DNA of 64,000 nt from Solirubrobacteraceae bacterium (lineage in GTDB: Bacteria; Actinomycetota; Thermoleophilia; Solirubrobacterales; Solirubrobacteraceae), in the NCBI GenBank assembly GCA_017744415.1, contig JAGIBJ010000062.1:1-64000 (forward strand), written 5' to 3'. Below the pieces are notes generated by a model. That model searched no databases, had not been told where the DNA came from, and saw nothing but the letters and a program-made list of their open reading frames with translations. Positions 3,469 to 8,416 of this stretch are shown here, in pieces (within the stretch, counting starts at the first letter, position 1; every line of letters starts with the position of its first letter). A program made the translations under genes and the position numbers.

Positions 3469-4200
3469 TTACGGCAGGTCGGCGACGGCGTCGGCGAGCG
3501 GCTTGCGCAGGCCGGTGAGGAACGGCAGCTCCTCGCGGGTGTGGCGGCGGGCGCCGGCGCCGCGCAGGTGGCGCATGAGGTCGACGATCCGCTCGATCTC
3601 CTCGGCCTCGAAGGCCAACAGGAACTCGTAGTCGCCGAGCGCGAACCCGGAGACGGTGTTGGCGCGCACGTCGGGGAAGCCGACGGCCATCATGCCGTGC
3701 TCGCGCAGCAGCGCGGAGCGCTCCGCGGGATCGAGCAGGTACCACTCGAGGCTGCGCACGAACGGGTAGACGCAGAGGTATTTGAGCGGGTCCTCGCCGG
3801 CGAAGAACGCCGGCACGTGACCCTTGTTGAACTCGGCCTCGCGATGCACGCCGATGTTGGTCCACCAAGGCGTGAGCGAGCGGCCGAGGCGCGTGTGCTG
3901 GAGGTTGACGAGCGCCTGCTGCAGGCCATCGGCCGTCTCGGAGATCAGCCAGAACATCAGGTCGGCCTCGGCGCGGAAGCCGACCAGTGAGTAGGTGCCG
4001 CGGATGTGCACCCCGGGGACGCTCGCGATGGCCTCCTCGGCCTCGGCGGCGGCTGCCGCGCGCTCCATCGGATCCAGACGACGGTCGCCGCGCTCGCCCG
4101 AGTAGGCCGCGTAGGCGGTGAAGGTGAGGCCGACGGGCTCGTTGCCGGAGCTCTCGGGCTTCACGTAGGTCTTCGTGGGCGTTTCGGTCGGGGCTGACAC
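3469..4200 (-). CDS. hemQ: Coproheme decarboxylase HemQ
   Basis: A 243-residue chlorite-dismutase-family protein. In the coproporphyrin-dependent pathway HemQ performs the last step, the peroxide-driven decarboxylation of coproheme III to heme b. The family motif YPFVRSLEWYLL is present and contains the catalytic tyrosine. LLREHGMMAVGFPDVRANTV carries the probable proximal histidine. The chlorite-dismutase distal arginine is not evident, which fits HemQ rather than a true Cld. The start is GTG 4200 with AAGGAG 9 nt upstream. It follows cgoX by 61 bp on the same strand, as expected for consecutive pathway enzymes. Confidence 0.93.
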   Translation of the reverse strand: MSAPTETPTKTYVKPESSGNEPVGLTFTAYAAYSGERGDRRLDPMERAAAAAEAEEAIASVPGVHIRGTYSLVGFRAEADLMFWLISETADGLQQALVNLQHTRLGRSLTPWWTNIGVHREAEFNKGHVPAFFAGEDPLKYLCVYPFVRSLEWYLLDPAERSALLREHGMMAVGFPDVRANTVSGFALGDYEFLLAFEAEEIERIVDLMRHLRGAGARRHTREELPFLTGLRKPLADAVADLP

Positions 4201-4261
4201 GTTCAGGTGCTCCTTGGCAACGGTCTCGGGAATCGCCGGTTCATGAGCGGTCCCCCGGGAA

Positions 4262-5749
4262 TCATGATCGCGCGATCTCGTCGCGCGCGGCAGTCAGGCC
4301 GAGGCGGATGAGCTGGGCGTCGGCGGCCGCGCGCCCGTCGCGGATGCAGAGCGGCACGCTCGCGCCGCGGTAGGCGGCGCCGGCGAGACTGAGCGCGGGC
4401 AGGGCTTCGGCGACCTCGGTGGTCGCGGCCGCGATGCGCTCGGGGTGGCCCGGCGCGTACTGCGGCAGCCCACCGGAGACCCGCACCACACGGCTCGCGA
4501 TCGGCGGCGCCGTCAGGCCCAGGATCTCGGCCAGCTCGCGATGCAAGGCGTTGACGAGGTCCTCGTCGGTGAGGCGTTCGAAGCGGGCGTCGTCGATGCG
4601 GCCCGTCGAGCACTTGATCACCACGGCGTGCGCAAGGTCGTCCCCCGTGCCCTGCTCTTCGGCGACCGCCCGGCGCTGCGGCCACTTGCGATCGAGGAAC
4701 GTGCAGGCAGTCATGAGGCGGCGCTCGGGGCGCGGGACGAGGAAGCCGGTGCCGGCCGGCAGCTCGGCGGGGAGCGACGACGGGTCGTATGCGAGCGCGG
4801 TGTGCGCGACCGAGGCGTAGGCCAGCGCGCCGAGCGTGGATGCCGCCGTGACCGCATGCGGCGCGATGAGCCCAGCCGCGGTCGCGGCCGGCACCGCCAA
4901 GATCACGCCGTCGGCCTCGATCACGCCGCCGCTCGCCAGGCGGAGCGTCAGCGTCGCGTTGTCGCCGGGCTCGATGGCGTCGACCCGGGCGCCGGTGCGC
5001 ACCTTCACGCCTGCATCGCGGATCGCCCGGATGATCGCCTCGGCGAAGGGCTGCATGCCGCCGCGCGGCGCCATGAACACGGGGGCGCGTGGCGCTCCGG
5101 CGGCTGGGACCGGCGGGGCCGTCTTGCGGAGGCCGCGCAGCAGTGAGCGGTCGGCGCGAGCGGCGGCAGCAATCTGCGGCGCGGTCGCAGCAAGGCTCAG
5201 GTCGTCACAGCGGCCGGCGTGCACGCCGCCGAGGAGCGGATCGATCACGCGCTCGAGCGTCTGGCGGCCGAGCCGCCGGCGGATCAGGTGGCCGATCGAC
5301 TCGTCGCCGGCGGGCGCGTTGGCCGGAAGGATCAGGTCGAGCCCGGCGCGCAGCAGCCCGAGCGGGCCGAGGAGCCCGGAGCGCACGAATGGCAGGGGGC
5401 CGCCGGGCAGGCCCGCGAGAATGCCGGCCGGCAGCGGGCGCAGCTTGCCGCGCGAAAGCAGGAACGCCCCGCCCTCTCCGGGCGCGACCAGCTCGTCGTC
5501 CATGCCCACCTCGCGCGCGAGCTCGCGCGCCCACGGCATGCGCACCAGGAGCGAATCTGGGCCGAAGTCGACGGGCCGCCCGGCGAACGACTCGGTGCGG
5601 ATCCAGCCGCCCAAGCGCTCGCTGGCCTCGAGCAGCGTCACCTCCAGCGGGAGGTCGACAGCGGCTGCACGGCCGGCGAGCCGGTGCGCCGCGGCGAGGC
5701 CACTGATACCACCACCGATCACCACCACATGCCTGACGGGTTCCGTCAC
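4262..5749 (-). CDS. cgoX: Coproporphyrinogen III oxidase CgoX (HemG/HemY family)
   Basis: A 495-residue FAD-dependent oxidase of the HemY family. With HemQ as neighbour it most likely oxidises coproporphyrinogen III to coproporphyrin III, though the family also includes protoporphyrinogen oxidases. The N-terminus has the Rossmann dinucleotide motif VVVIGGGISGLAAAHRL, then LLEASERLGGWIRTE. The C-terminus has the FAD-contacting YAPGHPERI and GASVPLCIRDGRAAA. It starts at GTG 5749; CAGACT lies 7 nt upstream and may be its own -10 box. HemQ follows directly. Confidence 0.92.
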   Translation of the reverse strand: MTEPVRHVVVIGGGISGLAAAHRLAGRAAAVDLPLEVTLLEASERLGGWIRTESFAGRPVDFGPDSLLVRMPWARELAREVGMDDELVAPGEGGAFLLSRGKLRPLPAGILAGLPGGPLPFVRSGLLGPLGLLRAGLDLILPANAPAGDESIGHLIRRRLGRQTLERVIDPLLGGVHAGRCDDLSLAATAPQIAAAARADRSLLRGLRKTAPPVPAAGAPRAPVFMAPRGGMQPFAEAIIRAIRDAGVKVRTGARVDAIEPGDNATLTLRLASGGVIEADGVILAVPAATAAGLIAPHAVTAASTLGALAYASVAHTALAYDPSSLPAELPAGTGFLVPRPERRLMTACTFLDRKWPQRRAVAEEQGTGDDLAHAVVIKCSTGRIDDARFERLTDEDLVNALHRELAEILGLTAPPIASRVVRVSGGLPQYAPGHPERIAAATTEVAEALPALSLAGAAYRGASVPLCIRDGRAAADAQLIRLGLTAARDEIARS

Positions 5750-5846
5750 GACTGTCAGTCTGACGTGTCGCGCCCCGCCCCCGCTCGGTGATTCGCGCCC
5801 GATCTCCGCGGAGAAGTACGCGCTCGCCTCAGACGGTCGGTACGAC

Positions 5847-5864
5847 GAGCACCGGGTGGTGCTC
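5847..5864 (-). terminator. Short hairpin after the upstream paralog
   Basis: GAGCACC at 5847-5853 and GGTGCTC at 5858-5864 form a perfect 7-bp stem with a 4-nt loop just past the stop codon of the gene ending at 5867. It lacks a U-tract, so attenuation before cgoX is only possible. Confidence 0.35.
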
Positions 5865-5866
5865 CG

Positions 5867-6427
5867 TTAGCGGATGCCCGTCAGAGAGATCGAGAGCGAC
5901 GCCTCGCCGTCACGCCCGTTCTGCGCGTCGCGCTCGTACGAGATGAGCAAAGAGCCCGCACGGTCGGCGTTCTCGCTGACATCGCGCGCGCCAGGCCGGG
6001 CACTCCAGCTCACGGACTCGCCGAGCTTGCGCACGTCCCCGGAAACACCCGGCTCGGTCACGGTCCTCCACCCCACCCGTTCGGCGGCGGCGCGGGCCTT
6101 CCGGAATTCCAACTCGATCCGGTCGGACGGAATGCGAAACCGCCTGTGGATCGAGGCGGGCAACCGGCTCCCCTTGATGCTGTCGTGAGCGTTCTCCTTG
6201 AACTCGCTACTCGGCTTGATGCCCGCGGGCTCGTACGACGCCATCGGGTCGTGCTTCAGCTGGCGCAGGTCGGAGCCTGGGAGCGACGTGACGACGCTGA
6301 GCCCGACGAGCGCGACGATCACCAGCGCCCCCCAACGGGTCCTCGGCCCCTTGCGCTGGCTGGGCCCAACCTCGCGGTTCGCGAGGTCCGGAGCGACGTA
6401 CGGCTTGACCTCGAGCGGATCCCCCAT
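5867..6427 (-). CDS. Membrane-anchored protein, tandem paralog B
   Basis: A 186-residue protein with a cytoplasmic N-terminus of about 32 residues, one hydrophobic segment (WGALVIVALVGLSVV), and an extracytoplasmic domain. It is clearly paralogous to the next gene at 6503-7072. Both share DPMASY.P.GI after the membrane segment, a central R(I/V)P.DR...EF(R/K).ARAAA.R.GW block, and a final S(I/L)(S)(I)TL strand. Both coding sequences are preceded by the same CCGATACGTAGG sequence, so the duplication included the promoter. I do not recognise the family. The pair interrupts an otherwise typical heme operon. Confidence 0.75.
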   Translation of the reverse strand: MGDPLEVKPYVAPDLANREVGPSQRKGPRTRWGALVIVALVGLSVVTSLPGSDLRQLKHDPMASYEPAGIKPSSEFKENAHDSIKGSRLPASIHRRFRIPSDRIELEFRKARAAAERVGWRTVTEPGVSGDVRKLGESVSWSARPGARDVSENADRAGSLLISYERDAQNGRDGEASLSISLTGIR

Positions 6428-6502
6428 GCCCTACGTATCGGATCTCGCGGTGTCACCTGAACCTCGCGTCAGCTCCGATCGCGCGTGCGAGTGACCGAGC
6501 GC

Positions 6503-7072
6503 TCAGTTGCCGTCGAGCGTGATGCTGAGCACTGGGTCAGCGCCAGGTCCGTACCGCGGGTCCTTCGCCAGTCGGATCGACACGCTCGCGGCGCGCGGCC
6601 GGGTCCAGTCGGCCGGTTCCGGCCGACGCCCGCTCCAGCCGACCGACCCACCGAACGGGATGTCAAACTCCGCAGGCTTCGATTCATCGTCCGGCGTCCA
6701 CCCGGCGCGCACGGCGGCGGCACGCGCACGCTTGAACTCCGCCACAGCGCGGTCCTCGGGCACGCGGAACGCGCGCCAGATCCCGGCCCGGTGACGTTTG
6801 CCCATCGACGAGCCAGCGTCGTCCTGATCGTTGCGAAAGGCCGCGATCCCGACCGGCGCGTACGAGGCCATCGGGTCGCGCTGCAGCGCCCGCAGCTCCG
6901 GGCCGGACCGATCGACAAGCTTCCAGGCGGCCACGGCCTCGACAGCAAGAACGAGCGCCAGCACAGTCACACCGGCGCGCGCGCTCGCGGTGAGGCGCGC
7001 TGAGCGCCAGTCTCCCGCGCGCTCGGCCGTGGTCGGTGCGACGTGTGGCTGCGGCTCGCCCGGCTCCTCCAT
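6503..7072 (-). CDS. Membrane-anchored protein, tandem paralog A
   Basis: A 189-residue protein with one hydrophobic segment (VTVLALVLAVEAVAAW) and an extracytoplasmic domain homologous to its downstream copy. Shared features are RDPMASYAPVGI, FRVPEDRAVAEFKRARAAA, and a C-terminal ADPVLSITLDG. The ATG at 7072 is preferred to a GTG at 7135. The N-terminal MEEPGEPQPHVAP matches MGDPLEVKPYVAP of the paralog, whereas the extra upstream residues are relics of a ferrochelatase gene. CCGATACGTAGG before the start is repeated before the paralog and holds a TACGTA -10 candidate. Function unknown. Confidence 0.75.
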   Translation of the reverse strand: MEEPGEPQPHVAPTTAERAGDWRSARLTASARAGVTVLALVLAVEAVAAWKLVDRSGPELRALQRDPMASYAPVGIAAFRNDQDDAGSSMGKRHRAGIWRAFRVPEDRAVAEFKRARAAAVRAGWTPDDESKPAEFDIPFGGSVGWSGRRPEPADWTRPRAASVSIRLAKDPRYGPGADPVLSITLDGN

Positions 7073-7104
7073 GCTCCTACGTATCGGAGCAAGCCCCGCC
7101 AGCT

Positions 7105-7359
7105 GTAGGCGGCGCCGCTTCTGACCGACGCGCACGTCGGCGAGCTCGACGCCACGCGCGCGGCGAGCGCATCCACCTGCGCGTTTGTGATCTCGAGCAG
7201 CGGGGAGCGGCCGCCGGGCAGCTGGCGCTAGCGCTAGGCGAGCTCCGCGATCACCTCGTCGCTCGGGGCATGCCCGTGGCGGATGTGGGTGCAGTACTCG
7301 TTCACCTCGCTCGGATCCGAGCCCGTGCCGGAGCCCATCGCGAGCAGGCCGATCCGCGC
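7105..7359 (-). pseudogene. Ferrochelatase (CpfC/HemH) N-terminal relic
   Basis: Directly after hemE one frame reads ARIGLLAMGSGTGSDP, then EYCTHIRHGHAPSDEVIAELA, two amber stops separated by one Arg, then GGRSPLLEITNAQVDALAARV. This follows ferrochelatase order exactly. The known family has GLL.MAYGTP near the start, YYTHIRRG, RYRAIGG.SPL..IT..QA, then VRVYVG. One TAG stands where the family has the Tyr of RYR. After AAR a frame change gives LADVRVGQKRR, and the homology ends. The rest of the gene is missing and is replaced by the paralog pair. It cannot make an active enzyme, so coproporphyrin ferrochelatase must be encoded elsewhere. Confidence 0.8.
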
Positions 7360-7360
7360 G

Positions 7361-8416
7361 CTACGCCGTCGCCTTCGCCGAGGTGAGCTCGCGAACGAGC
7401 CGCACGACCTTGCCAGGCGTCTCAGCGTTGGTCTCCGGGAGCACGCCGTGGCCGAGGTTGAAGATGTGTCCGACGGGGGGCGCGCTCTCGACGATGCGGC
7501 GCACCTCGGCCTCGATCACCTCATCAGGCGCGAGGAGGACGGCGGGATCGAGGTTGCCTTGCAGCGCGCAGCGCTCGGGCACGAGCCGGCGGGCGTCCGC
7601 GAGATCGATGCGCCAGTCGACGCCGACGCAGTCGGCGCCCGTCTCGGCGAGGAGATCGAGCAGGTGGCCGGTGCCGACGCCGAAGATCGTGCGCGGTACG
7701 CCGAGCTCGGCCAGCTCGTCGAAGAGGTCGCGCATCACGGGCAGGATGTGGTCGCGGTACTGCGCGCGGCTGAGCGTGCCGATCCAAGAGTCGAACACCT
7801 GCACCGCCTCGGCGCCGGCGTCCACCTGCTCGCGCAAGCTCTGCGCGGCGATGCGCGCCAGACGCGTGAGGAGGTCGCGGAAGAGCTCCGGGTCGCTGAG
7901 CATCATCGCCTTGGTGAGCGACTGCTGCTTGCTGGGGCCGCCCTCGACGAGGTAGCTCGCGAGCGTGAACGGCGCGCCGCAGAAACCGATGAGCGGGATG
8001 CCCTGCGGGCCGAGCTCAGCGGTGATCAGCTTGATCGTCTCCGCGAGTGCGGGCATGTCTTCGGCGGGCGCGAAGTCGCGCAGGCGCGTGAGATCCGCGC
8101 GGCTGCGGAACGGCTGCGCGACGACGGGCCCGATGCCCGCCTTGATCTCGACGTCGACGCCGATCGCCTCGAGCGGGGTGACGATGTCGGAGAAGAGGAT
8201 CGCCGCGTCGACGCCGTGGCGGCGCACCGGCTGGAGCGTCACCTCGGCGGCAAGATCCGGGCGGTGGGTGATCTCCATCAGGCTGCCGAGCTTGCGCACC
8301 TCGAGGTACTCGGGGAGGCTCCGGCCCGCCTGGCGCATGAACCACACGGGCGTGCGCTCGACGGGCTCGCGCCGGAGCGCACGCACGAGCAAGGGATCGG
8401 CCGAAGGCGAGACCAT
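7361..8416 (-). CDS. hemE: Uroporphyrinogen decarboxylase
   Basis: A 351-residue enzyme that converts uroporphyrinogen III to coproporphyrinogen III by removing four carboxyl groups in the cytoplasm. Both family signatures are present: PVWFMRQAGR near the N-terminus and GFCGAPFTLASYLVEGG in the middle. The catalytic Asp is in AAILFSDIVTPLEAIG, and the C-terminus keeps FNLGHGVLPET. The length is standard. The start ATG 8416 lies 6 nt after TACCCT, so the transcript is probably leaderless. It heads the minus-strand heme gene set. Confidence 0.96.
   Translation of the reverse strand: MVSPSADPLLVRALRREPVERTPVWFMRQAGRSLPEYLEVRKLGSLMEITHRPDLAAEVTLQPVRRHGVDAAILFSDIVTPLEAIGVDVEIKAGIGPVVAQPFRSRADLTRLRDFAPAEDMPALAETIKLITAELGPQGIPLIGFCGAPFTLASYLVEGGPSKQQSLTKAMMLSDPELFRDLLTRLARIAAQSLREQVDAGAEAVQVFDSWIGTLSRAQYRDHILPVMRDLFDELAELGVPRTIFGVGTGHLLDLLAETGADCVGVDWRIDLADARRLVPERCALQGNLDPAVLLAPDEVIEAEVRRIVESAPPVGHIFNLGHGVLPETNAETPGKVVRLVRELTSAKATA

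What the first reader, a model, noticed from the sequence alone, without database searches (positions are those of the whole stretch)
7073..7360. Ferrochelatase gene reduced to a stop-interrupted relic inside the heme operon
One frame directly after hemE reads GLLAMGSGTGS, YCTHIRHGHAPSDE, two TAG codons, then GGRSPLLEIT and AQVDALAARV, in exact ferrochelatase order. The rest is missing. hemE, cgoX and hemQ are intact, so the one step between CgoX and HemQ has been lost from this locus.
Basis: partly seen in the sequence, partly recalled or inferred. Interest (0 to 1): 0.7.

Follow-up and report, generated by a model that had tools for sequence, protein, structure and literature searches.

The report
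Dead ferrochelatase gene, replaced by import
This actinobacterium carries the broken stub of its original iron-inserting heme gene inside the heme gene cluster, but elsewhere in its genome it has an intact iron-inserting gene that was acquired from a distant, mycobacteria-like relative.

Summary
Window 7117-7356 (minus strand), directly after hemE, is the N-terminal quarter of a coproporphyrin ferrochelatase gene (cpfC/hemH). It lost its start codon, gained two in-frame TAGs and a ~10-base deletion, and lacks the remaining ~three quarters, catalytic His and Glu included. It aligns at 75% over ~250 bases (E=3e-42) with an intact cpfC in the same place in a sister species (Patulibacter sp. A85_bin25_2). 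A second sister has hemE followed directly by cgoX, cpfC gone. The implied hole in the heme pathway is not supported: the same genome has an intact ferrochelatase on another contig (C123:5643-6770, Pfam E=9e-83), shared with the second sister and under purifying selection. That copy is not the operon gene moved. It nests inside a mycolate-type Mycobacteriales family (fabG1-inhA-cpfC context), own-class origin is rejected (AU p=1e-6), and it lies beside a DEAD-box helicase of the same foreign affinity. Best reading: xenologous gene displacement. A horizontally acquired, unlinked cpfC made the operon copy redundant; it decayed here and was deleted in a sister. This is a known kind of event, caught with the relic still legible. 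Limits: draft genomes, unnamed donor, order of events inferred.

The parts
7361..8416 (-). hemE, uroporphyrinogen decarboxylase, intact (351 aa)
   Evidence: TIGR01464 hemE 393 bits, cut-off 303; PF01208 E=1e-122
7117..7356 (-). cpfC (ferrochelatase) relic: N-terminal ~90 codons only; start codon lost, two in-frame TAGs, ~10-base deletion with frameshift, 3' three quarters missing
   Evidence: Translation; PF00762 E=5.3e-4; 75% DNA identity to the syntenic intact cpfC of L013, E=3e-42; groups with it 100/100 in the tree
7230..7238 (-). the two in-frame TAG stop codons (TAG CGC TAG)
   Evidence: Sequence and translation; the sister gene has GGGCGCTAC here
6503..7072 (-). gene of unknown function (189 aa; predicted N-terminal transmembrane helix plus small alpha/beta domain) now lying between relic and cgoX
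   Evidence: No Pfam match; 38% identical to the next gene; AlphaFold model mean pLDDT 72; no significant structural match; not found in sister genomes
5867..6427 (-). paralogue of the previous gene (186 aa)
   Evidence: 38% identity
4262..5749 (-). cgoX, coproporphyrinogen III oxidase (hemY/hemG-type flavoenzyme), intact (495 aa)
   Evidence: TIGR00562 227.7 bits, cut-off 97.9; PF01593 E=3e-47
3469..4200 (-). hemQ/chdC, coproheme decarboxylase, intact (243 aa)
   Evidence: NF042928 HemQ_actino 289 bits, cut-off 235

Best explanation
Xenologous gene displacement in the heme operon. The ancestral order was hemE-cpfC with cgoX (and hemQ) in the same cluster. An ancestor of this species and of sister G003 acquired by horizontal transfer a second, unlinked cpfC (with a DEAD-box helicase gene) from a mycolate-type Mycobacteriales donor. 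The newcomer supplies the iron-insertion step between CgoX and HemQ, so the operon copy was no longer needed: here it decayed to a 240-base stub, in G003 it was removed cleanly, in G002 it is still intact. Shown: the relic, its orthology, the intact second copy, its foreign phylogenetic placement, and purifying selection on it. Inferred: that the imported enzyme does the work, that acquisition came before loss, and the donor's exact identity.
For: Relic orthologous to the intact in-operon cpfC of G002/L013 (DNA 75%, E=3e-42; 100/100 with it inside a Solirubrobacterales-type clade). G003 has hemE followed within ~45 bases by cgoX, no cpfC between. The only other ferrochelatase in the window genome is intact: C123:5643-6770, PF00762 E=8.7e-83, NF000689 466 bits over cut-off 408, catalytic FTAHSIP and SDHLE motifs and a C-terminal cysteine cluster present. 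G003 has its counterpart (C932) with the same helicase neighbour. C123 and C932 group 99/98 with two genomes of family f35 inside a 100/100 clade holding all f35 members and Tsukamurella; forcing them into their own class costs 109 log units, p-AU 1.2e-6. f35 genomes carry fabG1-inhA-cpfC, a mycolic-acid gene context. The neighbouring helicase is also f35-like: 63-67% over most of its length, against domain-only matches in its own family. Codon positions of C123 versus C932 differ 7.0, 5.7 and 33.5%, i.e. strong purifying selection. C123 is not a stray contig: its other genes have 76-83% DNA matches in sister genomes and its tetranucleotide profile fits the window genome (r 0.87 vs 0.80 to f35).
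Against: All genus members are fragmented drafts (85-93% complete), so the absence of the imported gene from G002 and of everything from G001 is weak. Apart from the ~2.9-kb cassette the flanks of C123 and C932 differ, so the insertion site is not shared and two separate placements are possible. The helicase and cpfC are not neighbours in the sampled f35 genomes. Activity of the imported enzyme was not tested.
Confidence: 0.85

Rival explanations
1. Loss first, rescue later: the operon copy died in a heme-scavenging ancestor, which later regained heme synthesis by importing the mycobacterial-type cpfC.
For: Most relatives in the family and order lack hemE and ferrochelatase altogether although hemB and hemC are near-universal, so living without own heme synthesis seems common around this genus.
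Against: hemE, cgoX and hemQ are intact, which would be unexpected after a long period without the middle step; the relic is still 72% identical in protein over 65 codons to the sister gene, so decay seems recent compared with the 88.9% protein divergence level of C123/C932, which share the import.
Confidence: 0.1
2. The pathway is really broken here: C123 is a contaminating contig and the organism is a heme auxotroph that retains dead-end genes.
For: The genome is a draft of 139 contigs and the C123 ferrochelatase looks foreign.
Against: Sister G003 carries the same helicase-cpfC cassette; other C123 genes match sister genomes at 76-83% DNA identity; composition fits; contamination estimate 1.4%.
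Confidence: 0.03
3. Sequencing or assembly artefact: an intact cpfC lies here in reality.
For: Two TAGs and one frameshift close together could in principle be base-calling errors.
Against: About three quarters of the gene are absent, replaced by two intact genes; the start codon is absent as well; G003 independently lacks cpfC at the same place.
Confidence: 0.02

Closest known systems
[quoted passage not shown]
   Same: A foreign version of the same gene is present, the ancestral version is dead or gone, and the rest of the pathway is native.
   Different: Usually seen only as an odd branch in a tree; here the decayed native copy is still readable in its operon and three stages (intact, relic, clean deletion) occur within one genus.
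Dysfunctional duplicate ferrochelatases beside a functional one (PMC8529089: 11 such copies lacking the catalytic His)
   Same: One dead and one apparently functional ferrochelatase in one genome.
   Different: Here the two copies are of different origin and the dead one is a stub in the heme operon.
Actinobacterial C-terminal cysteine-motif ferrochelatases (NF000689; M. tuberculosis type in PMC8529089)
   Same: The C123 copy has the family score, the catalytic motifs and a C-x6-C-x3-CC C-terminal cluster.
   Different: It sits in a Thermoleophilia genome beside a DEAD-box helicase instead of beside inhA.
Operonic CpfC of Bacillota and Thermoleophilia (PRK12435 type), hemE-cpfC-cgoX
   Same: The relic and the G002, G004 and G027 genes are of this type and in this order.
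   Different: In the window only the first quarter survives.

Membership tests
Ferrochelatase pseudogene (cpfC relic) | Significant similarity to ferrochelatase | tested here: met
   PF00762 E=5.3e-4 for a 79-codon stub; DNA match to the intact orthologue E=3e-42
Ferrochelatase pseudogene (cpfC relic) | Inactivating lesions | tested here: met
   No in-frame start between hemE and 7338, two TAGs, ~10-base deletion, three quarters missing
Ferrochelatase pseudogene (cpfC relic) | Syntenic with intact gene in relatives | tested here: met
   Intact cpfC directly after hemE in G002/L013, G004, G027
Xenologous gene displacement | Second copy of same function intact in the genome | tested here: met
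   C123:5643-6770
Xenologous gene displacement | Second copy phylogenetically foreign | tested here: met
   Inside f35/Mycobacteriales clade; own class rejected, p-AU 1.2e-6
Xenologous gene displacement | Ancestral copy present in close relatives lacking the import | tested here: inconclusive
   G002 has only the operon copy, but it is an 85% complete draft
Xenologous gene displacement | Imported gene performs the lost function | not testable with these tools
   Catalytic motifs and purifying selection only
[2Fe-2S] ferrochelatase (the imported copy) | Cysteine motif CX(1,11)CX(1,11)C in the C-terminal tail (PMC8529089) | tested here: met
   C346, C353, C357, C358; cluster binding itself not tested

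The most novel reading that the evidence does not exclude
The lower heme branch (hemE onward) has been lost across most of this order while the upper branch stayed, and this genus is one of few lineages that keep heme synthesis, partly by replacing a failing native ferrochelatase with a mycobacterial-type cysteine-motif enzyme whose properties or regulation were selected for, not merely tolerated.
Probability: 0.15. Interest if true: 0.5.

Novelty: new member of a known kind. Interest (0 to 1): 0.35.

Why it matters
It shows a single-enzyme swap in an essential pathway caught part way: native operon copy intact in one species, a legible relic in a second, clean removal in a third, with a foreign unlinked replacement in the last two. 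It is a worked warning against inferring a pathway gap from a broken operon gene, and a warning for synteny-based annotation. It also points to a patchy distribution of late heme genes in the order.

Tried and rejected
Reading TAG as sense was considered and dropped: start loss, frameshift and truncation remain. The two inserted genes were examined as the possible cause or replacement of cpfC: no Pfam, no sister homologue, a middling AlphaFold model and no structural match better than E=0.04; no link to heme found, so function is left open. Codon-position counts for the relic (15, 20, 34%) against hemE (18, 15, 36%) hint at relaxed constraint but 65 codons are too few to conclude. Composition of the 2.9-kb cassette alone does not discriminate donor from host (r 0.645 vs 0.634). 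Literature searches for heme auxotrophy in Solirubrobacter/Thermoleophilia, and for ferrochelatase transfer there, found nothing.

Full report
What was claimed.

The observation. All genes here are on the minus strand. hemE (7361-8416), cgoX (4262-5749) and hemQ (3469-4200) are intact by curated profiles. The frame that starts one codon after the hemE stop reads ARIGLLAMGSGTGSDPSEVNEYCTHIRHGHAPSDEVIAELA*R*RQLPGGRSPLLEITNAQVDALAARV. Pfam's ferrochelatase model finds it in the raw genome at 7117-7353 with E=5.3e-4 and two TAGs. The weak E-value reflects its length; the decisive test is synteny. In sister genome G002 (identical to contig L013, titled Patulibacter sp. isolate A85_bin25_2) hemE is followed by an intact 348-residue cpfC. 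The window aligns to it at DNA level at 75% over 252 bases, E=3e-42, a score of 178 against at most 40 for 390 random window segments. In a protein tree the relic pairs with that gene at 100/100, with the reservation that it fills only 18% of the columns.

The lesions. Compared with G002: the start region is missing (no usable in-frame start between hemE and 7338); two codons read TAG where the sister has sense codons; ~10 bases are deleted, so that the last homologous stretch (GVELADVRVGQK) is in another frame; and homology stops at about 7117, after about 90 of ~348 codons. The catalytic His (FTAHSLP, residue 180 onward in G002) and Glu (SDHLE, 259 onward) lie in the missing part. Downstream, two paralogous genes of unknown function (6503-7072, 5867-6427; 38% identity) precede cgoX; they have no counterpart in the sister genomes.

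Is the step missing from the organism? No. The same whole-genome search finds an intact ferrochelatase on contig C123 (5643-6770, 375 residues, PF00762 E=8.7e-83; NF000689 466 bits over a 408-bit cut-off), with both catalytic motifs and four C-terminal cysteines that meet the motif published for cluster-bearing ferrochelatases (PMC8529089). Upper-pathway genes hemB and hemC are present too.

Where the second copy comes from. It is only distantly related to the operon type (relic DNA against it scores 48 versus 178). Its best relatives among 397 genomes of the phylum are members of one family, f35, at up to 65% identity; the best in its own class reaches 50%. In trees, C123 and its sister copy C932 of G003 nest inside f35; holding them with their own class is rejected (lnL difference 109, p-AU 1.2e-6). 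The DEAD-box helicase immediately upstream has the same affinity: 63-67% to f35 over most of its length, but only ~115-residue domain matches in its own family.

Contamination or resident? The helicase-cpfC cassette is shared with G003 at 84-89% DNA identity. Other genes on C123 match sister genomes at 76-83% and the contig's tetranucleotide profile fits the window genome better than f35. Differences between the two cassette cpfC genes are 7.0, 5.7 and 33.5% at codon positions 1, 2 and 3, the mark of a working gene.

Synthesis. Within one genus there are three states: operon cpfC intact and no import found (G002), operon cpfC a relic plus import (window), operon cpfC cleanly absent plus import (G003, hemE stop ~25-30 bases before the cgoX start). 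The simplest history is import in the ancestor of the window species and G003, then redundancy and decay of the operon copy. This is xenologous gene displacement as defined in PMC1274311; dysfunctional duplicate ferrochelatases beside functional ones are also on record (PMC8529089). The order of events, the activity of the import and the exact donor remain inferred; G002's lack of the import rests on an 85% complete draft, and the cassette's flanks differ between the two carriers.

Verdict. Observation confirmed; interpretation right about the locus, not about a pathway gap. A tidy example of a known process; interest moderate.

Noticed in passing
61 relatives of the window genome: hemB and hemC are each found in 59 of 61 genomes of the family and order, but a true hemE and a ferrochelatase in only 5 each, single-contig genomes among those without. 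Most of this order seems to lack the lower heme branch or to use something unrecognised; no paper on this was found in the library searched.
   Followed up: partly
L094 9636-10835 (genome G027), next to hemE-cpfC-cgoX: A TIGR04053 radical SAM/SPASM protein (451.7 bits over cut-off 395; next best the AhbD heme b synthase model) lies beside the heme genes, and no HemQ was noticed in the stretch read; it may replace HemQ as coproheme decarboxylase.
   Followed up: partly
window 5867-6427 and 6503-7072: Tandem paralogous genes (predicted one-helix membrane anchor plus small alpha/beta domain) inserted in the heme cluster, without Pfam match and without homologue in the sister genomes.
   Followed up: partly
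L095 (G000 C123) 3900-6800 and L096 (G003 C932) 3770-6870: A DEAD-box helicase and cpfC, both of Mycobacteriales affinity, travel as a ~2.9-kb pair with different flanks in the two genomes, although the two genes are not neighbours in the sampled donor-family genomes.
   Followed up: partly
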